A DNA stretch of 64,000 bases, taken from positions 1-64,000 of the forward strand of contig JAJVHV010000011.1 in assembly GCA_022072445.1 (NCBI GenBank), given 5' to 3'. Position numbers and translations under genes: made by a program. The notes below the pieces were generated by a model. It saw nothing but the letters and a program-made list of their open reading frames with translations, was not told the origin of the DNA and made no database searches. Shown in pieces: positions 2,569-64,000 of this stretch; within the stretch, counting starts at the first letter, position 1, and each line of letters starts with the position of its first letter. Source of the stretch: Phycisphaerae bacterium (GTDB lineage: Bacteria > Planctomycetota > Phycisphaerae > UBA1845 > Fen-1342).

Positions 2569-3570
2569 GTGCTCGCCGAACCGGAACCGCCGCAGCCCGC
2601 TGTCCCGCGCCTCAGCGACTGGCCTTTCCCGCCTTACCGTTTCGTCCCCGGCCTGAATCCTCACCCCAGCACCCTGAGCCTGCCGCCCGAGCCGCGACCA
2701 TACCCGCCCGAGCCGCGACCGCATCCGCCCGAGCCGCGACCGCATCCGCCCGAGCCGCGACCGCATCCGCCCGAGCCGCGACCGCATCCGCCCGAGCCGC
2801 GACCGTCAGGGAGCGGTTTCCTAGCCCCGCGCGAAAACCCCTCGACCGCAGCTCGCACTCCGGCTCGGCCACGAAACCGCTTGCTGACGCGCGCGGCTCG
2901 GCACCCACATTCGCCCGAGCCGCGACCACACCCGCCCGAGCCGCGACCACACCCGCCCGAGCCGCGACCGCATCCGCCCGAGCCGCGACCGTCAGGGAGC
3001 GGTTTCCTAGCCCCGCGCGAAAACCCCTCGACCGCAGCTCGCACTCCGGCTCGGCCACGAAACCGCTTGCTGACGCGCGCGGCTCGGCACCCACATTCGC
3101 CCGAGCCGCGACCACACCCGCCCGAGCCGCGACCGTCAGGGAGCGGCGGCCGACAAGGACGCCCCCAACCTCAATTGAGCCACGCCGAACCGGAAGCACG
3201 CCTCTTTCCGACCCGCTGGCACGACTGCCCGCACTACCTTTTTGGCGTTGATCTCTACAACTTCGCATACTGGTGGGAAGCACACGAAGCCTGGGAAGAC
3301 ATCTGGCGAGAACTTCCGCCTACCGACCCGTGCCGCGCTTTCCTCCAATGCCTCATCCAGGTCTCCGCGGCCCACCTCAAGCGGCACCTCGGCGTCGAGC
3401 GCGGCGTGCACGAACTGCTCTCCCGCGCCCAGCGCAATTTCAACGCCGCTGCCGCCGCCCCACCGCACACCGGCGGCATCGACCGCCTCGCCTGGTGGAC
3501 CGCCGTGCAGCGCTACTTCTCCGGTCAGACCACCCATTTCCCGTTTCTTCAGCCGCACGCAGATGCCTGA
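2569..3570 (+). CDS. DUF309-domain protein with a large proline-rich repeat insertion
   Basis: The predicted protein is 333 aa, starting at GTG 2569 with GAGG 5 bases upstream. The last third, from about residue 200, is a DUF309 domain: YLFGVDLYNFAYWWEAHEAW, then DPCRAFLQCLIQVSAAHLKR. DUF309 proteins are usually small (roughly 100-180 aa) and of unknown biochemical role. Residues about 40-195 are almost wholly composed of a repeated heptad PPEPRPH and of two copies of a block containing SGSGFLAPRENPSTAARTPA. This part corresponds to the DNA repeat array at 2686-3146 and looks like an in-frame expansion rather than a domain. The N-terminal 30 residues (EPPQPAVPRLSDWPFPPYRF) look native and match no repeat. 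Confidence 0.85.
   Translation: MLAEPEPPQPAVPRLSDWPFPPYRFVPGLNPHPSTLSLPPEPRPYPPEPRPHPPEPRPHPPEPRPHPPEPRPHPPEPRPSGSGFLAPRENPSTAARTPARPRNRLLTRAARHPHSPEPRPHPPEPRPHPPEPRPHPPEPRPSGSGFLAPRENPSTAARTPARPRNRLLTRAARHPHSPEPRPHPPEPRPSGSGGRQGRPQPQLSHAEPEARLFPTRWHDCPHYLFGVDLYNFAYWWEAHEAWEDIWRELPPTDPCRAFLQCLIQVSAAHLKRHLGVERGVHELLSRAQRNFNAAAAAPPHTGGIDRLAWWTAVQRYFSGQTTHFPFLQPHADA
2794..2899. mobile_element. Small inverted-repeat (MITE/REP-like) element, copy 1
   Basis: A 26-bp left arm at 2794-2819 starts GAGCCGCGACCGTCAGGGAG. The right arm at 2874-2899 is its imperfect reverse complement, with about five mismatches. The arms flank 54 bp of unique-looking sequence. There is no room for a transposase, so any mobility would be in trans. 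It is copied at 2980-3085, and related arms lie at 7107-7130 and 28195-28218. Confidence 0.6.
2980..3085. mobile_element. Small inverted-repeat (MITE/REP-like) element, copy 2
   Basis: This copy lies exactly 186 bp after copy 1 and has the same arms (2980-3005 and 3060-3085) and the same core. The flanking 21-bp units are duplicated with it, so this copy more likely arose by tandem duplication of the whole 186-bp block than by an independent insertion. Confidence 0.6.
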
Positions 3571-37619: not shown

Positions 37620-37833
37620 CACAGCGCGGCTCCGGTACGATTCCGCCTTTTCTTGTCGCTTCAAAGGGCGAGCGATCGGAGAGTTTCGCGTTTTTTTTCC
37701 GAGCGCACAACGCGAGCGGGCGAAGAACCGGTAGTCGGGCCGAATCGAGCGTCGGACGGTGGGAGGCGTGGTGGTGCTGCTCCCGGCTGCTTCCCCGGGA
37801 CGCTCGTTGGGCGGAGTCGCTTTCGTTAACATG

Positions 37834-37883: not shown

Positions 37884-39233
37884 ATGAGTTTTCGAGTCGC
37901 CGCAATCGCATCGAGTCTGGCGCTGACGCTCAGCGCGATGGGTTGGCAGGAGCAGAATCCGCCCACCCAGAATCCTCCCACCCAGAATCCGCCCACGCCG
38001 CAGGTGACGCCCGGCACGCCACAACCCGTGCCGCAGGTCATCCCGGCGGGCCCGAAGCCCAAGCTGACGCTGTCCGCGACGTCGTGGGATTTCGGCACGG
38101 CGATCTACGGCGATTCGCCGACGTATACGCTGACGCTCAAGAACGAGGGCGACGCGGACCTGACCGGATTGAAGGTGCGCGGGAGCTGCTCGTGCACCGT
38201 GCCGCAGCTCAAGACCGACATGCTCAAGCCGGGCGAGTCGACCGAGGTGTCGGTGACGTTTAACACCAAGAAGAAGCAGGGCGACATCTCGACGATGGTG
38301 ACGATCAACAGCAACGACCCGGTGCAGCCGACCGCGTATTTCAAGGTGTCGGGCAACGTGTCGAAGATCGTCGCGTTCGAGCCCGCGATGGTGAAGTTCC
38401 AGGCGACCGAGCCGACCGCCGAGCTGTCAGCGACGGTGAAGATGATCAACAAGTACAACGAGCCGATGAAGCCGGAGTTCGCGAGCATCAACTCCGACAC
38501 GTTCGACGTTTCGCTCAAGGAGATCGAGGCCGGGCAGGTGTACGAGGTGGTGGTGAAGGCCAAGAACCCGCTGCCCTACGGCCCGACCAACGCGACCGCG
38601 AAGTTCAAGACCGGCATCGCGCGCATGGCTGAGGCCGAGCTGAACGTCTCGGCCGACATCAAAGCCCGCGTCACGGCCGTCCCGGCGGTGGTGTGGCTCG
38701 ACGACCGGACCGACACGGTGCAACGCCGCAACGTGCGGGTTCAGTATTTCGGCGAGGACGCGAATTTCGCTGTTACCGAGGTGAAGTCGGCCGATCCCGC
38801 CCTGGTGGTGGTCGAGGCCAAGCCGATCATCCGCCACAACGCGGTGGCCAAGCCGGCCGGCGCCGCGACGGTTGGCCAAGCCGAGACGGCCAACGTTCCG
38901 CTGATGCTCAGCGTCGAGTCGCCCAAGAAACTGCCCAAGGAAGGCGTCAAGGTCATCTGCAAGACCAACGACCCCAAGTTCCCCGAGCTCGAAGTCCTGG
39001 TGACCACCGACAAATCGCAACTGCTGCGCGGGATGGGGTTCCGTGGCGGAACGACGGCGGCCGCCGGACCGGCGCCGGCCAAGCCCGGCACGCCGACCAA
39101 CCCGTCTCAGGAAGAGAGCCTGCGGCGGCTGCGCGAGCTGAGCGAGCGAATGAAGGCTCAGCAGCAGGTGACGCCCGGCGAGACGCCGACCGAGCCGGCC
39201 AAGCCGCAAAGCGATGAAAAGCAGAACCCCTAG
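37884..39233 (+). CDS. Exported DUF1573 protein, copy 1
   Basis: The predicted protein is 449 aa from ATG 37884 (GGAG about 8 bases upstream). A signal peptide (VAAIASSLALTLSAMGWQ) is followed by a low-complexity linker of NPPTQ repeats. Next is a DUF1573 domain (LTLSATSWDFGTAIYGDSPT, then LTGLKVRGSCSCTVPQL) with the paired Cys usual in this family. Further immunoglobulin-like domains follow up to about residue 380. The tail is Pro/Thr/Lys-rich. DUF1573 domains are ASPM-SPD2-Hydin-like beta-sandwiches found on exported proteins of Bacteroidota and Planctomycetota, with unknown function. A paralogue follows at 39440. Confidence 0.9.
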   Translation: MSFRVAAIASSLALTLSAMGWQEQNPPTQNPPTQNPPTPQVTPGTPQPVPQVIPAGPKPKLTLSATSWDFGTAIYGDSPTYTLTLKNEGDADLTGLKVRGSCSCTVPQLKTDMLKPGESTEVSVTFNTKKKQGDISTMVTINSNDPVQPTAYFKVSGNVSKIVAFEPAMVKFQATEPTAELSATVKMINKYNEPMKPEFASINSDTFDVSLKEIEAGQVYEVVVKAKNPLPYGPTNATAKFKTGIARMAEAELNVSADIKARVTAVPAVVWLDDRTDTVQRRNVRVQYFGEDANFAVTEVKSADPALVVVEAKPIIRHNAVAKPAGAATVGQAETANVPLMLSVESPKKLPKEGVKVICKTNDPKFPELEVLVTTDKSQLLRGMGFRGGTTAAAGPAPAKPGTPTNPSQEESLRRLRELSERMKAQQQVTPGETPTEPAKPQSDEKQNP

Positions 39234-40633: not shown

Positions 40634-41249
40634 GGCCGCGAGGCGCCCCGTGATTCTGACCCTCGCCCGATTTCTGCTGATCCTGATGCTCGCGGCCGGG
40701 TCGGCGACGGCCTACGTCCGCGTGCGCTACCCGAAGGCGTCGTGGGTCTACGTGCCGCCACCCCCCGGCGTGCGCATGTCGCTCGAGGAATTGCGGGCGG
40801 CGATCGAGGAGTCGCGGAGCGGGGCGGAAGTCGTGCTGGTCGACGCGCGCGAGCCGGCCGAGTACGCCAAGGGCCGCATCCCAGCGCCCACCATCATCAA
40901 CATTCCGGCCGACGAAGTCGATGAGTATCTGCACAAGATGGAGATGTTCCGCGGCTGGCGCATCATGCTCTACTGCACGTCCGTCACCTGCGATGCCGCC
41001 GAACGCGTCTTCGAGCGCCTGACGCGGAACGGATTCGACCAGATGCGAATCTATCACGAAGGCTGGGAAGGCTGGCTGGCGGCCGGCGAACTGCCCGAGG
41101 CCGGCCCCGACCTGTACATGGGGCTGCCCCTTGACGAAAGCGGCGCCCCGATGGAAGAACCGCCGACGGACGCGCCTGCTGACGCCGCGGGCGGCGAGGC
41201 CGAGCCGGAGCCCGGTTCGGAGCCGGCCGGCAGCGGAGAATCGCCATGA
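40620..41249 (+). CDS. Membrane-anchored rhodanese
   Basis: The predicted protein is 209 aa from GTG 40620, inside the end of the preceding gene. An N-terminal membrane anchor (ILTLARFLLILMLAAGSATA) at residues 12-31 is followed by a periplasmic rhodanese domain, residues about 53-155 (LVDAREPAEYAKGRIPAP, YHEGWEGWLAAGELPEAG). Cys119 sits in the active-site loop LYCTSVTCDAAERV, and Cys124 gives a CxxxxC pair that could form a disulfide. The C-terminal 45 residues are acidic and Pro-rich. It overlaps the MauE/DoxX gene (ATGA), so the pair is probably made together. Confidence 0.88.
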   Translation: MAASEAARRPVILTLARFLLILMLAAGSATAYVRVRYPKASWVYVPPPPGVRMSLEELRAAIEESRSGAEVVLVDAREPAEYAKGRIPAPTIINIPADEVDEYLHKMEMFRGWRIMLYCTSVTCDAAERVFERLTRNGFDQMRIYHEGWEGWLAAGELPEAGPDLYMGLPLDESGAPMEEPPTDAPADAAGGEAEPEPGSEPAGSGESP

Positions 41250-41779
41250 CGCCCGCGCGCGGCCGCGGCTTCTGGGTTCGCTGGTGGTGCTCGCTGGCGC
41301 TGCGCGTGCTGGTGGGCGGCGTCTTCATCTACTATGCCTACGGCAAGCTGGCTGAACCGCCCGAGAAATTCGCCCGCGCGATCCGCGGGTTTCAGATGGT
41401 GCCCGAAAGCTGGACCAACGGAATGGCGATTGTCATGCCGTGGGTCGAAATGTACGCCGGCGTCCTGCTCGTGCTGGGTGTCTTCCTGCCCGAGGCCCGC
41501 GTGCTGACCGCCGCCATGCTCCTGGCTTTCATCGCCGCGTTCATCTTCGCAATCTCGATGGGATTGAAGATCGAGGATTGCGGCTGCGGCGGGGCGAAGA
41601 AGGGCGGGGCGCCGCCCAATCTCTGGTTGCTGATGCTCCGCAATTTCGGCCTGCTGGCGTGCCTGGCGGTCGACGCCGTAATTCACCAGCCCCGGTGGCG
41701 CGGCGCGCGGCGCTCGGGCGCCGCCGACCCTGGCAAAGGCGACCTCGCGCCGGCGGCGGCTGCCCCGCACCCGGGCTGA
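41246..41779 (+). CDS. MauE/DoxX-family integral membrane protein
   Basis: The predicted protein is 177 aa from ATG 41246. Four transmembrane helices are seen at about residues 14-33 (LALRVLVGGVFIYYAYGKLA), 58-80 (GMAIVMPWVEMYAGVLLVLG), 86-106 (VLTAAMLLAFIAAFIFAISM) and 125-145. A Cys motif GLKIEDCGCGGAKKGG follows helix 3, at the place where MauE-family proteins carry redox Cys. MauE is needed for disulfide formation in methylamine dehydrogenase; in this locus the partner is probably the anchored rhodanese or the DUF1573 proteins. The C-terminal tail is Arg/Ala-rich and probably cytoplasmic. Confidence 0.88.
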   Translation: MTPARGRGFWVRWWCSLALRVLVGGVFIYYAYGKLAEPPEKFARAIRGFQMVPESWTNGMAIVMPWVEMYAGVLLVLGVFLPEARVLTAAMLLAFIAAFIFAISMGLKIEDCGCGGAKKGGAPPNLWLLMLRNFGLLACLAVDAVIHQPRWRGARRSGAADPGKGDLAPAAAAPHPG

Positions 41780-55196: not shown

Positions 55197-55273
55197 GCCG
55201 ACACCGCACCACGCGCAAGCGGGTCGCCATGCGGGTACGAGGGGAGAGCATGCTCACGCCTGACGGCGAGAGG

Positions 55274-55385
55274 ATGCCACCCACGAGCGCATGCCACCGA
55301 CGAGAGCATGCCAGCGGGGCGAGAGCATGCCACCCACGAGCGCATGCCACCGACGAGAGCACGCCAGCGGGGCGAGAGCATGCCA
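55274..55385. repeat. Tandem 53-bp repeats built of GCATGCCA subunits
   Basis: Two units, 55274-55326 and 55327-55379, differ at one base and are followed by the start of a third (ATGCCA). Each is built of three shorter subunits around GCATGCCA and GAGCATGCC. Sequence from 55197 onward, before the first unit, also holds related pieces. The 53-bp unit is not a multiple of three and no gene covers it. Confidence 0.9.
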
Positions 55386-55407
55386 GGGGGGCATGCCAGC
55401 GCGGGCA

Positions 55408-57510: not shown

Positions 57511-57645
57511 TCCTCCTCCGTTGAGTCGCCTGCCGCCGAGTCGCGTTCTAACATTCTGTCGATACCGAAGTTGCGCGTTTTTTTTTCCTGGATTTTCCGC
57601 CCAGGCGCGAGAATACTTTATGGGTCGGCCCATCGGAGACCATCC

Positions 57646-58002
57646 ATGAAACGACTGTCAACCTCGGAGTGTATGCTGGCGATTTGGGTGTGCGTGCTGG
57701 GAGCTGCGGTACCGTTGCTCACTGCGGCAGTCAGACCCAACTACAAATGCAGTCCGACCTTCATTTCCCACTGCGTTGAGCCTTACAACTGCACGGTGTG
57801 GGGAGGATACACTTGTACCGACGGTTCGACCTCGGGCTCGAAAAAGGGACAAGGCGTGCCATTCCGCGTGTGCGTCACGTCACCAGGCGACAATTGCTCA
57901 GAAGAGTCGGTTCGTTGCTTCAAAGACGTGTACTACAAGAACACAATCTGCACCGGCGACATTTGCGCGATTTACTATTACTACACCGATGGTTGCGAGT
58001 AG
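57646..58002 (+). CDS. Exported cysteine-rich peptide of unknown function
   Basis: The predicted protein is 118 aa from ATG 57646, with GGAG about 7 bases upstream. Residues about 10-28 form a signal peptide (MLAIWVCVLGAAVPLLTAAV). The mature part of about 90 residues has ten Cys (in NYKCS, SHCVE, YNCTV, YTCTD, FRVCV, DNCSE, VRCFK, TICTG, DICAI and DGCE), enough for five disulfides. Tyr is also frequent near the end (CAIYYYYTDGCE). No family is recognised. It is followed, 9 bases later, by an anchored protein and then a MauE-like redox membrane protein, which fits a need for disulfide formation. Confidence 0.8.
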   Translation: MKRLSTSECMLAIWVCVLGAAVPLLTAAVRPNYKCSPTFISHCVEPYNCTVWGGYTCTDGSTSGSKKGQGVPFRVCVTSPGDNCSEESVRCFKDVYYKNTICTGDICAIYYYYTDGCE

Positions 58003-58011
58003 GAGAGCATC

Positions 58012-59040
58012 ATGACGATTCGCTGCGTCGCCAAATCGTGGAAATCGTGCGAAGTGCTGGCGATCATTTCAATCTCGTTGCCGAGTTACGCGATGCAGTC
58101 GGCTGAGTTCGTGCCCGGACGACTCTCAGACAGCGAGACGAACGAGGTCGTTCAGCGCGTGGCTCAGCAACAGAGCGTCGTCGACAACCTGATGGCCGAG
58201 TTCCGGCTGGAGTTTGAACTGAAGACCGGCGAGCAGTTCTCCGCCACCTACGATTGGGCGCGGTCCGTTCCTTCAGAGCGGCTGGAAACCAGGTTCACGG
58301 ACGTGCCCGAATGGGCAAAGTACCACGGGTTTGACGACGAGCTATTCGTCGCGACGTCCGACCGGACGGTCGAGCTGCTTGTCCGGAGCAATCAAGTCAT
58401 CATCATGGCACAGCCGCATCCGCTTGCCACGGTCTTCACGCCGCTCGATTTCCTGAGACCCGGAACACGCCGCAGTTTCGATGAGCTGGCTAGAGACGGT
58501 GCCAAGTTCGACGCGAGCCGTTTGGGTCCGCAGCTGATCGAGTTGTGTTTTGCGATGCCGGAGGCCCCGGACCGATCGACCTCCGTGCTCTTGGAAGTCC
58601 GTGAAGGACATTACTTGGTGACTGCCTGGAAGTGCGACGCGTGCAAGTCAGCCGCGGAGATCGAGTACGAGAGACAGGACGACGGGCAGTGGTTTCCGAG
58701 TTTCGCGACGTTCAACTCCGACGAGGCACCCGTCGTGCGGCAGGCCACCATGAAAACCACCAAGCTGGCGCTGTGGCCGCCCGCCGAGAGTGCATTTGCG
58801 TTCGAATTCAGACGGGGCATGACCGTTACTGATACGCGGGACGCCGATAATGACGGGAATTCTCCCGGGTTCATGGTTGACGAAAACGGTAATCTGGTGC
58901 CCGCGCACGTGGTTTATCCGGTAGGCGCGGGCGGTCCGGTCAATACAGCCAGCGCGCTCCGCGCGGGAGCAGCTTCCGCAGGTCTAATCCTCGCCGTGCT
59001 GGCCGGGAGACACCTCCATCGTCGAAAGCAGCTCGCGTGA
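58012..59040 (+). CDS. Exported, C-terminally anchored protein of unknown function
   Basis: The predicted protein is 342 aa from ATG 58012, preceded by GGAGAG about 7 bases upstream. A signal peptide (VLAIISISLPSYAMQ) is likely. The body has a layout of alternating strands (VDNLMAEFRLEFELKTGEQF, DRTVELLVRSNQVIIMAQPH, RSTSVLLEVREGHYLVTAWK) which recalls LolA-type hydrophobic-ligand folds. It contains an isolated CDAC motif. The C-terminal end has one transmembrane helix (AASAGLILAVLAGRHLHRRK) with a basic tail inside. No family is assigned. It overlaps the MauE-like gene (GTGA), so the two are coupled. Confidence 0.82.
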   Translation: MTIRCVAKSWKSCEVLAIISISLPSYAMQSAEFVPGRLSDSETNEVVQRVAQQQSVVDNLMAEFRLEFELKTGEQFSATYDWARSVPSERLETRFTDVPEWAKYHGFDDELFVATSDRTVELLVRSNQVIIMAQPHPLATVFTPLDFLRPGTRRSFDELARDGAKFDASRLGPQLIELCFAMPEAPDRSTSVLLEVREGHYLVTAWKCDACKSAAEIEYERQDDGQWFPSFATFNSDEAPVVRQATMKTTKLALWPPAESAFAFEFRRGMTVTDTRDADNDGNSPGFMVDENGNLVPAHVVYPVGAGGPVNTASALRAGAASAGLILAVLAGRHLHRRKQLA

Positions 59041-59513
59041 CTCGTCTCAGCGGAGCTTCTTGGCGGAGGGCGGCCGACGTCGCGGTCGCCTTCTTCTTCG
59101 TGTTCGCCGGCGTAACGAAATTGATGACCACCTCTGACGACGGCGTCCAGCACTTGCTCGTTCTGGCTGGAGTCACTGACTCGAGAGCGCTCATTGCCGC
59201 GGCATCCATGCTGCCGTACTTTGAAGTTGTGCTGGGGCTATGGGTCGTCCTCGAATGGCGGCCAACCGCAGCCGTCGTCGCCATGGCCGTGACTCTGGTT
59301 GGGTTTACAACGGTCATCACACTGATCGGCCTCCGGCTCGGGTGGGGCGTCAAATGCGGATGCACCGCCGGCGTCACAAACGGCTCTATCGGGACGGCGA
59401 TCTTCCGCAACGTTGCGCTGTTGGCACTCGTGCTCGCGCCACGCGCGATCAGCCGCACTCGCCGCCATCCGGCCGTGTCCAAAGCGGCCCCATCCGCATC
59501 GGTCGCCAACTGA
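59037..59513 (+). CDS. MauE/DoxX-family integral membrane protein
   Basis: The predicted protein is 158 aa from GTG 59037. Four hydrophobic segments lie at about residues 14-30 (VAVAFFFVFAGVTKLMTT), 51-72 (LIAAASMLPYFEVVLGLWVV), 77-101 (AAVVAMAVTLVGFTTVITLI) and 122-138 (NVALLALVLAPRAI). The redox-type motif GVKCGCTAGVTNGSIGT follows helix 3, the same place as the CGC of the MauE-like protein at 41246. It is the last gene of the Cys-rich peptide cassette. In MauE-type systems a partner protein is matured by disulfide formation; here the partner is most simply the Cys-rich peptide. Confidence 0.88.
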   Translation: MTRLSGASWRRAADVAVAFFFVFAGVTKLMTTSDDGVQHLLVLAGVTDSRALIAAASMLPYFEVVLGLWVVLEWRPTAAVVAMAVTLVGFTTVITLIGLRLGWGVKCGCTAGVTNGSIGTAIFRNVALLALVLAPRAISRTRRHPAVSKAAPSASVAN

Positions 59514-59901: not shown

Positions 59902-61110
59902 ATGCCGACTTTTGCCTACAAAGCGCGAAATCAGACCGGCGATGTCGTCGGCGGGACCCTCATCGCCGAGACCCCCGCCGCCGCCGCCCGCATACTGGAC
60001 GAACGCGCCCTCGTGCCCGTTCACGTGGACGAGGTCAAGGCCGCCGGCAGGTCGTTTCTGACCGGCGGCACGCGCCGCATCGGCATCTCGAAAATCGGCG
60101 TGATCTACGAGCAACTCGCCGACCTGCTGAAGTCGGGCGTGCCGATGCTGCGGGCGCTCGACGTGCTCGCCAAGCAGGCCTCGAATCCGTCCATCTCGCG
60201 CGTGCTCCGCGAGCTGCGCGACGACATTGCCGGCGGCGACGCGCTGGCCGACGCGATGGAGAAGCACCCGCACGCGTTTCCGAACCTGCACGTGACGACG
60301 GTCCGCGCCGGTGAGGCGGGCGGATTTCTTGAGGACGTCCTGGCGCGGCTGTCCGACTTCGTCGAGCGGCAGGACGAGCTGCGGAACAAGTTCATCGGCG
60401 CGATGATCTACCCCTGCATCCTGCTGCTGGGCGGTCTGGGCGCCGTCGTTTTCCTGATGATCTACGTCGTGCCAAACATCCGCCCGGTGCTCAGCGGTCA
60501 GCAACTGCCGCTGCCGACGATCATCGTCTTCGGCCTCAGTGACGCGTTCAGCCAGCACTATCTCATGCTCGCGGGCGTGATCGTACTGATCGTCGCCGGC
60601 GTCGTCGGGTTCTTTCAGAGCGGCGCGGGACGCGTGCTGTGGGCTAAGCTGCAACTGTCGGCGCCGCTCGTGGGTAAGATATACACCATGATTTCGTTGT
60701 GCCGCTTCTGCCGCATCCTCGGCACCATGCTGGCCAACGGAATCCCGATCCTCCAGGCCCTGCGGATCGCCAAGGATTCAACCGGGAACTCCGTCCTGGC
60801 GGAGTCCATCGATCGCGCCGCGGAGAGCGTCCGCTCCGGCGACTCGCTCGCCACGCCGCTTTCCGCCAGCCGCATCTTCCCTCCGGCCGTGCTGGACATG
60901 ATCGCCGTCGCCGAGGAGAGCAACACGCTCGACAAGGTGCTGGTGGACGTGGCCGACACGCAGGAGGCCCGCACGGCCCGGCAGATCGACCTGGCCATGC
61001 GGCTGCTGGAACCGGCGATGCTCGTGGTCATGGCCGGAATCGTGATGTTTATCGCGGTGGCGCTGCTGCTGCCGATCCTGAAAATGGCGACTTCCGGATT
61101 CAAGGGCTGA
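59902..61110 (+). CDS. gspF: Type II secretion system inner-membrane protein GspF
   Basis: GspF is the polytopic platform protein that links the GspE ATPase to the pseudopilus. The predicted protein is 402 aa from ATG 59902. It has two T2SSF domains with the GE-containing cytoplasmic helices: TVRAGEAGGFLEDVLARLSD and VAEESNTLDKVLVDVADTQE. Transmembrane helices occur near residues 170-190 (AMIYPCILLLGGLGAVVFLM), 217-240 and 375-395 (LVVMAGIVMFIAVALLLPIL). The N-terminal segment MPTFAYKARNQTGDVVGGTL is standard. It is first in a run gspF-G-H-I-J. GspF and pilus assembly PilC cannot always be told apart, but the downstream pseudopilins make GspF the better call. Confidence 0.95.
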   Translation: MPTFAYKARNQTGDVVGGTLIAETPAAAARILDERALVPVHVDEVKAAGRSFLTGGTRRIGISKIGVIYEQLADLLKSGVPMLRALDVLAKQASNPSISRVLRELRDDIAGGDALADAMEKHPHAFPNLHVTTVRAGEAGGFLEDVLARLSDFVERQDELRNKFIGAMIYPCILLLGGLGAVVFLMIYVVPNIRPVLSGQQLPLPTIIVFGLSDAFSQHYLMLAGVIVLIVAGVVGFFQSGAGRVLWAKLQLSAPLVGKIYTMISLCRFCRILGTMLANGIPILQALRIAKDSTGNSVLAESIDRAAESVRSGDSLATPLSASRIFPPAVLDMIAVAEESNTLDKVLVDVADTQEARTARQIDLAMRLLEPAMLVVMAGIVMFIAVALLLPILKMATSGFKG

Positions 61111-61159
61111 GCCGGCGTCGCCGCGAACGCTATGCGACAATTGCAAGGAGCTGACAACC

Positions 61160-61618
61160 ATGAAAACCATCACACGCAATCGCAAGTCCACCCGACGCCG
61201 CGCGTTCACCCTGCTGGAAGTGCTGATGGTGATCATCATCATCGGCGTTCTGGCGGCTCTGGTCGTGCCGAGTCTGGTGGGCACGGGCGAAGGAGCCAAG
61301 GCCGACATCACCAAGGCCATCATCGAATCGGGGCTGGCCACGCCGCTGGATACGTACAAGATCCACACCGGCCACTATCCGACCGATGAGGAGGGTGGGC
61401 TGAAGGCCCTCGTCGAGCGTCCCAGCGATGAGAACGTGGCCAAGAACTGGCGCGGCCCGTACGTCAAGGACGCCAGCAAAATCAAGGACGCCTGGGGCAA
61501 CGAGCTGATCTATCAGGCGCCCGGCGAGTATCACACGGATTCGTACGACCTCTCCAGCCCCGGACCGAACGGTACGCCCGGAGACGACGACGACATCACC
61601 AACTGGCAGAAGGTGTAA
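61160..61618 (+). CDS. gspG: Major pseudopilin GspG
   Basis: GspG is the main subunit of the periplasmic pseudopilus that pushes substrates out. The predicted protein is 152 aa from ATG 61160, with a leader of 15 residues. The cleavage site is RRRA-FTLLEVLMVIII, with Ala in place of the usual Gly at -1 and Glu at +5. The C-terminal part has the GspG signature: YPTDEEGGLKALVERP, WRGPYVKDASKIKDAWGNEL and YDLSSPGPNGTPGDDDDI, with the calcium-site loop near residues 130-150. It follows gspF by 49 bases. Confidence 0.95.
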   Translation: MKTITRNRKSTRRRAFTLLEVLMVIIIIGVLAALVVPSLVGTGEGAKADITKAIIESGLATPLDTYKIHTGHYPTDEEGGLKALVERPSDENVAKNWRGPYVKDASKIKDAWGNELIYQAPGEYHTDSYDLSSPGPNGTPGDDDDITNWQKV

Positions 61619-61673
61619 ATCTGCGGCGGGTCGCGGCCGCCGCTGCGCCGCCCCGACGTGAACTGACGCGCGC

Positions 61674-62384
61674 ATGATCGTGACCACGACCCCCGCCGAC
61701 CGCGGTGCCCGACCGACGGCCGACCGCCGCCCGGCCGGCCCGCGCCGCGGCTTCACGCTTTTCGAAGCGCTGCTCGTCATCATGCTGCTCGGCGTGCTGA
61801 CCGTCTTCCTCTGGCCGGATTTCGACGTCATGAAACGCGGCGAACAGCTCAACGAGTCGATCACGCGGACGCGGGCCGCCATCGCCATGTGCCGCGCCCA
61901 GGCCATGAACGAGTCGCGGCGCTACTGCATCACGTTCAAGCCCGACGGCTCGCTCTTTCTGACTCGCCAGAAAGACCCGCTGCTGGCGCCCGAGGAATAC
62001 GTGCTGGTGGGCGACGGCTGGGCGGCGCACCCGGCCCTGCTCGACGACGTCTGGATCGAGGCCGTGCAGGCCCTGCCTCAGGGTCCGCCGCCGCTCGACG
62101 CCGAGGAAGACGACGAACTCGTCGAGCTGCTCGACAAGATCGACGAACCCGTGCCGCTGGAAGCGAATTTCGAGATCTTCTTCGAGCCCGATGGGACGAG
62201 CACCTCGTCCCGCTGGATTCTGCGCGAGACCACCGGCCACGGCCGCAAACTGACGCTCGACGGCCGCCTCGGCCGCGTCTACGTCGAAGAGGTCGAGAAG
62301 CTGCCCGAAGAGGACGTGCGGCGGCCCACGCCGGACGACGAGCGGCCCGAGCTGCAACTGGTTGTCGAAACGGTGACGCCATGA
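61674..62384 (+). CDS. gspH: Minor pseudopilin GspH
   Basis: The predicted protein is 236 aa from ATG 61674. The leader of 26 residues ends PGPRRG, and the class III signal G-FTLFEALLVIMLLGV follows (Gly26, Glu31). The N-terminal helix, then INESITRTRAAIAMCRAQA-like sequence, fits the GspH/FimT family. It is longer than usual (about 150-180 aa) because of an acidic region with DAEEDDELVELLDKI at about residues 142-156. It overlaps gspI (ATGA). GspH is thought to sit near the tip of the pseudopilus. Confidence 0.9.
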   Translation: MIVTTTPADRGARPTADRRPAGPRRGFTLFEALLVIMLLGVLTVFLWPDFDVMKRGEQLNESITRTRAAIAMCRAQAMNESRRYCITFKPDGSLFLTRQKDPLLAPEEYVLVGDGWAAHPALLDDVWIEAVQALPQGPPPLDAEEDDELVELLDKIDEPVPLEANFEIFFEPDGTSTSSRWILRETTGHGRKLTLDGRLGRVYVEEVEKLPEEDVRRPTPDDERPELQLVVETVTP

Positions 62385-63484
62385 GTATCGCGCTTTTCAA
62401 GACGGGTCTACGCGGCCGTGCGCCGCGGGCGTCGCACAACGCCGCGACGGTCCGGTGCGGCGCGCTGCTGCTCGAAGTGGTCGTCGCCATGACGATCCTG
62501 ATTGCCGCGATGGCGTTCATCGGCACGCAGATGGTGGCCGGCATCCGCACGGTCGGGCTGGGCGAGCAGGAGACGCGCCTGTCCGAGCTGGCCGACCGCC
62601 TGCTGGCGCTGCTCGAGCTCGACATGCAGACGTCGGAGCGGCTCTTCACCGACCGTTCGACCGAGGGCGATTTCGGCGACCAGTATCCCGAATACTCGTG
62701 GCAGGCGTCGGTCGAAACGACCGAGCTGCCCGGCCTCGGCCAGGTCACCATCGAGATCCTCTATCTGCCCGACACGCCCAGCAATCCCAACGACGACGAG
62801 CCGGTCGTCGTGCGGCGAATGTACCTGCTGAAGGCTGATCCGGGGCGGATCGACTTCGGTGCCGATTTCGGCATGAACGAAGAGCAGCTCACGCAACTGT
62901 CGCAGACCATCCCCATCCCCGGGTTCGATCCGACCCAGTTCAACCCGCAGGAACTTGTCTCGCAAGACCCCGCCACGCTCCTGCAAATGCTGCCCGTCAT
63001 CCTGGCCATGCTCCAGCAATACACCGGCGGACAAGGAATCGAGGAATTGCTCGGCCCCGGCGGACTCGAGGGCGCCACACCCGACCAGATTCGCGAACTC
63101 CTGGCTGGACAGCTCGGAGACCTCGCCGGCGGCGAGGGCCTGCCCGGCGGCGAGCCCGGCGACGAAGCCGGCGAACGCACCGGCGTTAACGCCGGACTGA
63201 TCGCACCCCCGCCGGGAGGCGGACGCTCCGCCACTGGCGGAACGCGCCGCGGCGGCGGCGGTGACGGGGCGACGCGAACGACGCGCGGAAACCGCGGTGG
63301 AAACGGTGGGCGTTCAGGGGCGACCGGCAACAACAACCGCTCCGGCGGCGCGAACAACCGCAGCGGCGGGACACGGCGCGGCGGCGGCAACGCCGCCGAC
63401 GAGCAGGCCCGCATCGAGGAACTCATGCGTTTGCGCGACCAGCTCAATCGCGGCGGCGGCGGGGACAACGGCGGTGGAGAATGA
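62381..63484 (+). CDS. gspI: Minor pseudopilin GspI-like with Gly/Arg-rich extension
   Basis: The predicted protein is 367 aa from ATG 62381, against about 125 aa for typical GspI. The prepilin site is RCG-ALLLEVVVAMTILIAA, with Gly27 at -1 and Glu32 at +5. The first 150 residues are pseudopilin-like (LADRLLALLELDMQTSERLF, VETTELPGLGQVTIEILYLP). After that there is a Gln/Leu-rich part (ILAMLQQYTGGQGIEELLGP). Finally, from about residue 268, a Gly/Arg/Asn-rich tail occurs (RRGGGGDGATRTTRGNRGGN). The GspI identity is based mainly on position between GspH and GspJ and on prepilin form. Confidence 0.8.
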   Translation: MSIALFKTGLRGRAPRASHNAATVRCGALLLEVVVAMTILIAAMAFIGTQMVAGIRTVGLGEQETRLSELADRLLALLELDMQTSERLFTDRSTEGDFGDQYPEYSWQASVETTELPGLGQVTIEILYLPDTPSNPNDDEPVVVRRMYLLKADPGRIDFGADFGMNEEQLTQLSQTIPIPGFDPTQFNPQELVSQDPATLLQMLPVILAMLQQYTGGQGIEELLGPGGLEGATPDQIRELLAGQLGDLAGGEGLPGGEPGDEAGERTGVNAGLIAPPPGGGRSATGGTRRGGGGDGATRTTRGNRGGNGGRSGATGNNNRSGGANNRSGGTRRGGGNAADEQARIEELMRLRDQLNRGGGGDNGGGE

Positions 63485-64000
63485 GCGCCCGTCGGCGGTC
63501 TGGCTCTCACGCCGCCCGGCCACGCGCGACCCGCAGGCTGGCGTTGACCCTCTTCGAGGTCCTCATCTCGCTGGTCATCATCGCCGTCATGCTGGCCACC
63601 ATGCTGATGTTCCTCTGGGGCTTCCTTGAGTCAAAGAAGGAAGCCGCGCTGCTGGCCGACCGCACCCAGATCGCCCGGCAGATTCTCGACCGCGTCGCCG
63701 CAGAACTCCGCGGCTGCGTCGGCATGGACGAGATCAACTTCGCCACCGAAAAGGGGCAGCGGCTGCTCGGCGAACGCCGCAGCATCACGTTCCTCACCGC
63801 CGCCGTCCCCGAGCGCTACCAGTACGAGTTTGTCGACGACCTCGCAACTCCGCCACCGGCGCAGCACGACCTGCGCAATCTCAGCTACTCGCTCTGGATC
63901 GATCCGGAGAACAAGACCGAGGACAACGAGCCGATCGTGGGCGGGATCATCCGCACCGAGAAACGCACGCTCAACCAGTTCCTGGTCGACGAGGAAGACC
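63481..64000 (+). CDS. gspJ: Minor pseudopilin GspJ (partial, runs off the window)
   Basis: ATG 63481 overlaps the gspI stop. 173 codons are visible and the frame is open at the right edge. The prepilin site is RRLA-LTLFEVLISLVIIA, with Ala at -1 and Glu26 at +5. After the helix there is ADRTQIARQILDRVAAELRG, which fits GspJ, and then beta-rich sequence (YQYEFVDDLATPPPAQHDLR, LSYSLWIDPENKTEDNEPIV). GspK would be expected next. The identity as GspJ is by order and by the first 70 residues. Confidence 0.82.
   Translation, partial: MSARRRSGSHAARPRATRRLALTLFEVLISLVIIAVMLATMLMFLWGFLESKKEAALLADRTQIARQILDRVAAELRGCVGMDEINFATEKGQRLLGERRSITFLTAAVPERYQYEFVDDLATPPPAQHDLRNLSYSLWIDPENKTEDNEPIVGGIIRTEKRTLNQFLVDEED

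What the first reader, a model, noticed from the sequence alone, without database searches (positions are those of the whole stretch)
57646..59513. Uncharacterised cassette: ten-Cys exported peptide, anchored protein, MauE-like redox protein
Three tightly packed genes (9-base gap, then GTGA overlap) encode a signal-peptide-bearing peptide with ten Cys, a signal/anchor protein with a CDAC motif, and a four-helix MauE/DoxX protein with a CGC motif. In methylamine dehydrogenase clusters, MauE is required for maturation of the multi-disulfide small subunit MauA. By analogy, this cassette could make and mature an exported disulfide-rich peptide or toxin. The family-level link for MauE is known; the application to this cassette is inference.
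Basis: partly seen in the sequence, partly recalled or inferred. Interest (0 to 1): 0.7.

Follow-up and report, generated by a model that had tools for sequence, protein, structure and literature searches.

The report
Repeat-flanked cysteine-rich exported peptide cassette
A group of planctomycete bacteria carries repeated copies of a small gene set that makes an exported, cysteine-rich peptide together with its own membrane redox protein and a membrane-anchored partner of the lipoprotein-carrier fold, usually behind short DNA repeats of the kind that can switch genes on and off.

Summary
The three genes are where stated, with the 9-base gap and GTGA overlap, and they are not a chance arrangement. 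The same genome holds two further copies in the same order (one peptide gene truncated). The order recurs in four other genomes of the order; two loci in a fifth lack MauE. Most peptide Cys are conserved. The middle protein matches no Pfam family, but its low-confidence model has the LolA/LolB fold and a C-terminal membrane helix; its CDAC motif is confined to this genome. A second Cys-rich peptide family (12-14 Cys) occurs with its own LolA-like and MauE partners. Cassette MauEs form peptide-type-specific clades. MauE tends to be lost where the peptide is broken, while the LolA-like gene persists. All seven intact type I cassettes have simple-sequence repeats just upstream (controls 11 of 257 genes), suggesting phase variation. 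Best reading: an exported multi-disulfide peptide matured with a dedicated MauE and held or received by an anchored LolA-like protein. Maturation is inferred; the role (toxin, signal or envelope part) is open. Nearest precedent: MauE-linked candidate RiPP families with precursors of at least 8 Cys in Streptomyces.

The parts
57570..57622 (+). Upstream element shared with the contig 7 copy (GTTGCGCGTTTTTTTT..TGGATTTTC..GGCGCxAGAATACTTxATG)
   Evidence: MAFFT alignment of the two upstream regions, while DNA further upstream is unrelated; TTGCGCGTTTTTTTT and GAGAATACTTTATG each occur once in the window without mismatch
57578..57586 (+). T9 homopolymer tract, 59 bases before the peptide start
   Evidence: One of only two simple-sequence repeats of this definition in the 64-kb window
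57646..58002 (+). Type I cysteine-rich exported peptide, 118 aa, ten Cys after the signal region
57646..57729 (+). Signal-peptide-like N-terminus of the peptide (residues 1 to about 28; cleavage site not computed)
   Evidence: sequence reading; conserved only as a hydrophobic segment in homologues
58012..59040 (+). Middle protein, 342 aa: LolA/LolB-fold domain (residues 37-261) and C-terminal membrane anchor
   Evidence: AlphaFold2 model pLDDT 52, pTM 0.50; Foldseek and VIA-align matches; no Pfam family
58633..58644 (+). CDAC motif of the middle protein; C-x-x-C kept in the three copies of this genome only
58948..59034 (+). C-terminal transmembrane helix (residues 313-341) with basic tail
   Evidence: hydrophobic C-terminus also in homologues
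59037..59513 (+). MauE-family four-helix membrane protein, 158 aa, GTG start overlapping the previous stop
   Evidence: Pfam PF07291 E 3.2e-13
59355..59363 (+). CGC motif of MauE; its two Cys are the only Cys columns shared by all 15 MauE proteins aligned

Best explanation
The cassette makes an exported, disulfide-rich peptide with two dedicated membrane partners. Inferred mechanism: the peptide crosses the inner membrane by its signal sequence. The MauE-family protein, through its conserved C-x-C pair, helps form or sort the peptide's disulfides, as MauE is thought to do for MauA. The LolA/LolB-fold protein, held in the inner membrane by its C-terminal helix with its cup in the periplasm, binds either the peptide or the hydrophobic site or lipid the peptide acts on, as escort or as receptor/immunity partner. 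Simple-sequence repeats upstream of the peptide gene probably make expression switchable. Shown here: gene order, Cys conservation, co-inheritance, predicted fold of the middle protein, repeats. Inferred: disulfide formation, binding, switching, topology. Unknown: what the peptide does.
For: Three cassettes in one genome in the same order. Type I peptide at nine loci, always next to a type I LolA-like gene, seven times with MauE next to that. Type II peptide and LolA-like genes keep the same company. Conserved Cys, ten in five of seven full-length type I peptides. MauE C-x-C invariant. Cassette MauEs are monophyletic by peptide type, support 0.93 and 0.91, apart from housekeeping MauEs. MauE kept with an intact peptide 13/16, with a broken or missing peptide 1/6, Fisher p 0.011. 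LolA/LolB fold, Z up to 12.6. Repeats upstream in 7/7 intact type I cassettes against 11/257 control genes. Precedent of mauE with precursors of at least 8 Cys in Streptomyces (PMC7794033).
Against: No experiment. Two type I loci (both in one genome) and some type II loci have no adjacent MauE, though those genomes hold MauE elsewhere. A few peptides have an odd Cys count (11, 13, 13). The peptide could not be modelled (pLDDT 32). The middle-protein model is of low confidence (pLDDT 52). Loci are not phylogenetically independent, so the Fisher values are too small. The repeat criterion was set after the first repeats had been seen, and no length variation within a population was observed.
Confidence: 0.5

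Rival explanations
1. Toxin and immunity: the peptide is a secreted antibacterial or kin-discrimination toxin, the anchored LolA-like protein protects the producer, and MauE serves only to fold the toxin. Repeats switch production on and off.
For: The LolA-like gene is never missing where the peptide is present, but persists where the peptide is broken or absent: truncated at contig 15, split by a transposase gene in G015, truncated beside a transposase in G023, remnant in G022, none at contig 37 and one more G023 locus. Several divergent copies per genome and patchy presence.
Against: No known toxin or bacteriocin similarity; no match in PADLOC or Pfam. The same asymmetry would arise if the LolA-like protein had another job, or simply because small genes decay fastest. 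Mature peptides are mostly weakly acidic, unlike most cationic antimicrobial peptides.
Confidence: 0.25
2. Envelope or surface component: the peptide is a disulfide-stapled surface or outer-membrane part, the LolA-like protein escorts it or a bound lipid across the periplasm, and phase variation gives antigenic or phage-receptor variation.
For: LolA, LolB and DUF1329 folds are linked to carrying lipoproteins and other hydrophobic cargo (fold matches); repeats of this kind often control surface-exposed products (general knowledge).
Against: No lipobox in the peptides by reading; no outer-membrane partner gene in the cassette; narrow and patchy distribution.
Confidence: 0.2
3. Periplasmic metal or electron-transfer protein: the conserved Cys bind metal or a cluster and MauE keeps them reduced.
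For: Cys-rich, exported, paired with a redox-type membrane protein.
Against: Cys spacing varies between members and families, no ferredoxin-like pattern by reading, no family match; exported multi-Cys proteins are usually oxidised (general knowledge).
Confidence: 0.05

Closest known systems
MauE of methylamine dehydrogenase clusters (Pfam PF07291), maturation of MauA
   Same: MauE-family membrane protein encoded with an exported protein that has many Cys; a role of MauE in disulfide formation has been proposed (as cited in PMC7794033)
   Different: No methylamine dehydrogenase genes seen in the neighbourhood; the partner is a 118-aa peptide with no family match; no MauD-like thioredoxin in the cassette; added LolA-fold protein
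decRiPPter candidate RiPP families with mauE homologues in Streptomyces (PMC7794033)
   Same: mauE homologue beside a small precursor gene with at least 8 Cys, outside any mau cluster
   Different: Different phylum; precursors could not be compared (supplement not readable here); no LolA-fold partner or upstream repeats are mentioned in the passages read
LolA/LolB superfamily, including LolA3 of Porphyromonas gingivalis (9tp6), NE2245 (3buu), DUF1329 (4z48) and RseB/MucB
   Same: Helix plus strongly curved beta-sheet cup; Z 12.6 down to about 6 over residues 37-261
   Different: C-terminal transmembrane anchor; about 15% identity or less; no Pfam match; gene partners are a Cys-rich peptide and MauE rather than Lol or sigma-E genes
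Phase-variable contingency loci with homopolymeric or short tandem repeats (known from Neisseria, Campylobacter, Helicobacter; general knowledge)
   Same: Homopolymers of 8-14 bases or 8-10-bp units in 6 to 12 copies just upstream of the first gene
   Different: Variation in length has not been observed here; no report for planctomycetes stood out in the two paper searches made

Membership tests
MauE family (PF07291) | profile score above the curated cut-off | tested here: met
   50.5 bits, cut-off 27
MauE family (PF07291) | C-x-C pair shared with other MauE proteins | tested here: met
   two Cys columns invariant in 15 aligned MauE proteins
Methylamine dehydrogenase maturation system | mau structural and maturation genes in the cluster | tested here: inconclusive
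   none seen by reading the called genes of the window and of the two paralogous loci, but the mau families were not searched genome-wide
LolA/LolB superfamily | LolA/LolB fold | tested here: met
   VIA Z 12.2 to LolA3, 11.7 to NE2245, 11.1 to LolB; Foldseek E 7.8e-6; model confidence is low
LolA/LolB superfamily | sequence match to a LolA/LolB family profile | tested here: not met
   no Pfam family for this protein or nine relatives; described as LolA-like fold, not filed as LolA
LolA/LolB superfamily | binding and transfer of lipoproteins or another hydrophobic ligand | not testable with these tools
   needs biochemistry
MauE-associated candidate RiPP families of PMC7794033 | small precursor with at least 8 Cys beside mauE | tested here: met
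   ten Cys, adjacent cassette
MauE-associated candidate RiPP families of PMC7794033 | precursor homologous to theirs and post-translationally modified | not testable with these tools
   their precursor table is in a supplement that was not available
Phase-variable locus | simple-sequence repeat in promoter, leader or coding region | tested here: met
   7/7 intact type I cassettes, 11 of 21 cassettes overall, against 11/257 control genes; frame break at a G9 tract in the MauE gene of the contig 10 cassette
Phase-variable locus | repeat length varies within a population and changes expression | not testable with these tools
   one genome per species held

The most novel reading that the evidence does not exclude
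A previously undescribed, lineage-restricted kind of phase-variable peptide system: unrelated Cys-rich exported peptides, each with its own co-inherited MauE subfamily and an anchored LolA-fold partner that acts as escort or immunity protein, used by planctomycetes as switchable secreted effectors.
Probability: 0.3. Interest if true: 0.8.

Novelty: new variant of a known kind. Interest (0 to 1): 0.62.

Why it matters
It gives MauE, whose redox role has rested on one metabolic cluster, a set of small natural partner peptides on which its function can be tested directly. It adds a peptide-linked, membrane-anchored branch to the LolA/LolB fold. If the repeats vary in length, it would be evidence of phase variation in planctomycetes. 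It also points to a source of new disulfide-rich exported peptides.

Tried and rejected
Scan of named genomes with the middle protein alone found nothing, and alignments A5 and A6 had no stretch conserved enough; a MauE-based alignment named two of the relatives. No match of the middle protein in plasmids. No PADLOC match. No Rfam match. No sigma-70-type promoter by consensus. No convincing solved-structure sequence relatives for peptide or middle protein. AlphaFold of the peptide failed. Exact search for the shared upstream element elsewhere in the genome gave zero, but the pattern was too strict even for the two known copies, so it says nothing. Type I peptide hits in G211 and G023 were discarded as chance: no partner gene beside them. 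Type I and type II peptides could not be shown to be related; the two LolA-like groups align weakly but collinearly (P 0.001). Type I peptide elsewhere in the phylum: none but this genome in an even sample of 392 genomes. A metal-binding reading was considered and ranked low.

Full report
Observation. The window holds the three genes exactly as described: peptide 57646-58002, middle gene 58012-59040, MauE gene 59037-59513, all on the + strand, with a 9-base gap and a GTGA overlap. Only the third has a family match, MauE PF07291 at 50.5 bits against a cut-off of 27. The peptide has ten Cys after a hydrophobic start.

The same genome. A search of the window's own genome (5.25 Mb in 50 contigs) finds seven MauE genes, two further copies of the middle gene (46-53% identity) and two further copies of the peptide gene. 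They form two more cassettes in the same order at contig 7 and contig 15. In the contig 15 copy the peptide gene has lost its 5' half: only 59 residues remain, next to an unrelated gene. The contig 19 (window) and contig 7 copies share a short upstream element with a T9 or T8 tract, while the DNA further upstream is unrelated.

Other genomes. The middle protein finds weak relatives in 3 of 60 other genomes, and in every case a Cys-rich peptide gene, whole or broken, lies just upstream. With peptide and middle-protein profiles the type I cassette is found at nine loci in six genomes: G000 three times, G008, G019, G040, G241, and G015 twice. MauE follows in all but the two G015 loci. One G015 peptide gene is split in two by a transposase gene. 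The distribution is narrow: 8 of 397 genomes of the class had a hit, of which two were judged chance, and only this genome in an even sample of 392 from the phylum.

A second peptide family. Of the other MauE genes of this genome, the one at 41246 of the window is a housekeeping type beside DUF1573-like and rhodanese-like genes (by reading). Those on contigs 17 and 10 lie beside another LolA-like gene and a different Cys-rich exported peptide with 13-14 Cys; the contig 37 locus has the LolA-like gene and a frame-broken MauE but no peptide. Reading the neighbours of 25 further MauE genes of the family brought the same arrangement in G008, G010, G015 and G023. Profile searches and inspection give 13 type II loci. 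Type I and type II peptides cannot be shown to be related; the LolA-like proteins align weakly but collinearly over 195 columns (P 0.001). A possible third kind (C14 tract, 8-Cys exported protein, two paralogous anchored proteins, MauE) lies in G016 (L063).

What travels with what. Of 22 loci with a LolA-like gene, 16 have an intact peptide gene and 6 a broken one or none. MauE is adjacent and unbroken in 13 of the 16 and 1 of the 6 (Fisher p 0.011; 0.054 if the frame-broken MauE of contig 37 is counted as present). In this count the MauE of contig 10, whose frame changes at a G9 tract, is counted as present. No peptide was found without a LolA-like gene, apart from one that lies at a contig end (L111). 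The peptide and MauE therefore tend to be lost together, while the LolA-like gene outlasts them. The loci are related by descent, so these values are only a guide. In a tree of 34 MauE proteins those of type I cassettes form one clade (support 0.93), those of type II another (0.91), and both stand apart from the housekeeping MauEs. MauE is thus inherited by peptide type.

Fold of the middle protein. A three-sequence AlphaFold2 run gave a low-confidence model (mean pLDDT 52, pTM 0.50), with a helix, a run of strands and a C-terminal helix at 313-341. Foldseek against solved structures puts a LolA protein first (E 7.8e-6). VIA-align gives Z 12.6 to a DUF1329 protein, 12.2 to LolA3, 11.7 to NE2245 and 11.1 to LolB over residues 37-261. 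With a signal-like N-terminus and a basic tail after the last helix, the likely topology is a periplasmic LolA-like domain anchored in the inner membrane (inference).

Repeats. Short repeats lie just upstream of the peptide in every intact type I cassette: T9 in the window, T8 at contig 7, AGCCCGTCGC 12 times in G008, a 9-bp unit 12 times in G015, CCGCCAGT 6 times in G019, G14 in G040 and C13 in G241. With one fixed definition, 7 of 7 intact type I cassettes have a repeat within 350 bases, the two broken ones have none, and 4 of 12 other cassettes do, against 11 of 257 control genes from the same loci; four of those eleven are cassette repeats seen from a divergent neighbour. With a stricter definition it is 5 of 7 against 1 of 253 (p 1.3e-8). 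In the contig 10 cassette the MauE reading frame changes at a G9 tract: its first helix is in one frame and the rest in another. This pattern resembles contingency loci. The definition was set after the first repeats had been seen, and no length variation could be tested.

Mechanism. The simplest account is a maturation unit for an exported multi-disulfide peptide, with MauE as its dedicated redox partner and the LolA-like protein as anchored escort, receptor or immunity partner. The MauE-disulfide link comes from the methylamine dehydrogenase system as cited in PMC7794033. That paper also reports three Streptomyces candidate RiPP families with mauE and precursors of at least 8 Cys, the nearest precedent. 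Persistence of the LolA-like gene without its peptide, several divergent copies per genome, switchable-looking expression and patchy distribution would fit a toxin with immunity, but they fit a surface component too, and nothing shows toxicity.

Verdict. A real, conserved, lineage-restricted cassette; interpretation partly supported; new variant of a known kind, with a novel combination of parts.

Noticed in passing
window 37691-37698: The only other repeat of this definition in the window, a T8 tract in a near-identical context (TTTCGCGTTTTTTTT), lies 185 bases before the gene at 37884, upstream of the DUF1573-like, rhodanese-like and MauE genes that end at 41779.
   Followed up: partly
L063 3878-6932: Possible third cassette kind in G016: C14 tract, 8-Cys exported protein, two near-identical anchored proteins and MauE; G021 (L060 3165-4555) has the anchored protein and MauE without a peptide.
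   Followed up: partly
L016 6001-6009: G9 tract inside the MauE gene of the contig 10 cassette, exactly where the reading frame changes.
   Followed up: yes
L044 2391-3855 and L105 5576-5737: Transposase genes split or truncate the peptide gene in two different genomes while the LolA-like gene stays intact.
   Followed up: partly
window 59902-63999: Immediately downstream lie genes that read as a type II secretion inner-membrane protein and pseudopilins (GspF, GspG, GspH and similar); probably not part of the cassette, since the paralogous copies lie elsewhere.
   Followed up: no
window 2683-3134 and 55265-55392: Longer tandem arrays (21-bp units inside a 186-bp repeat; 17-53-bp units with GAGAGCATGCCA) in or near intergenic DNA.
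   Followed up: no
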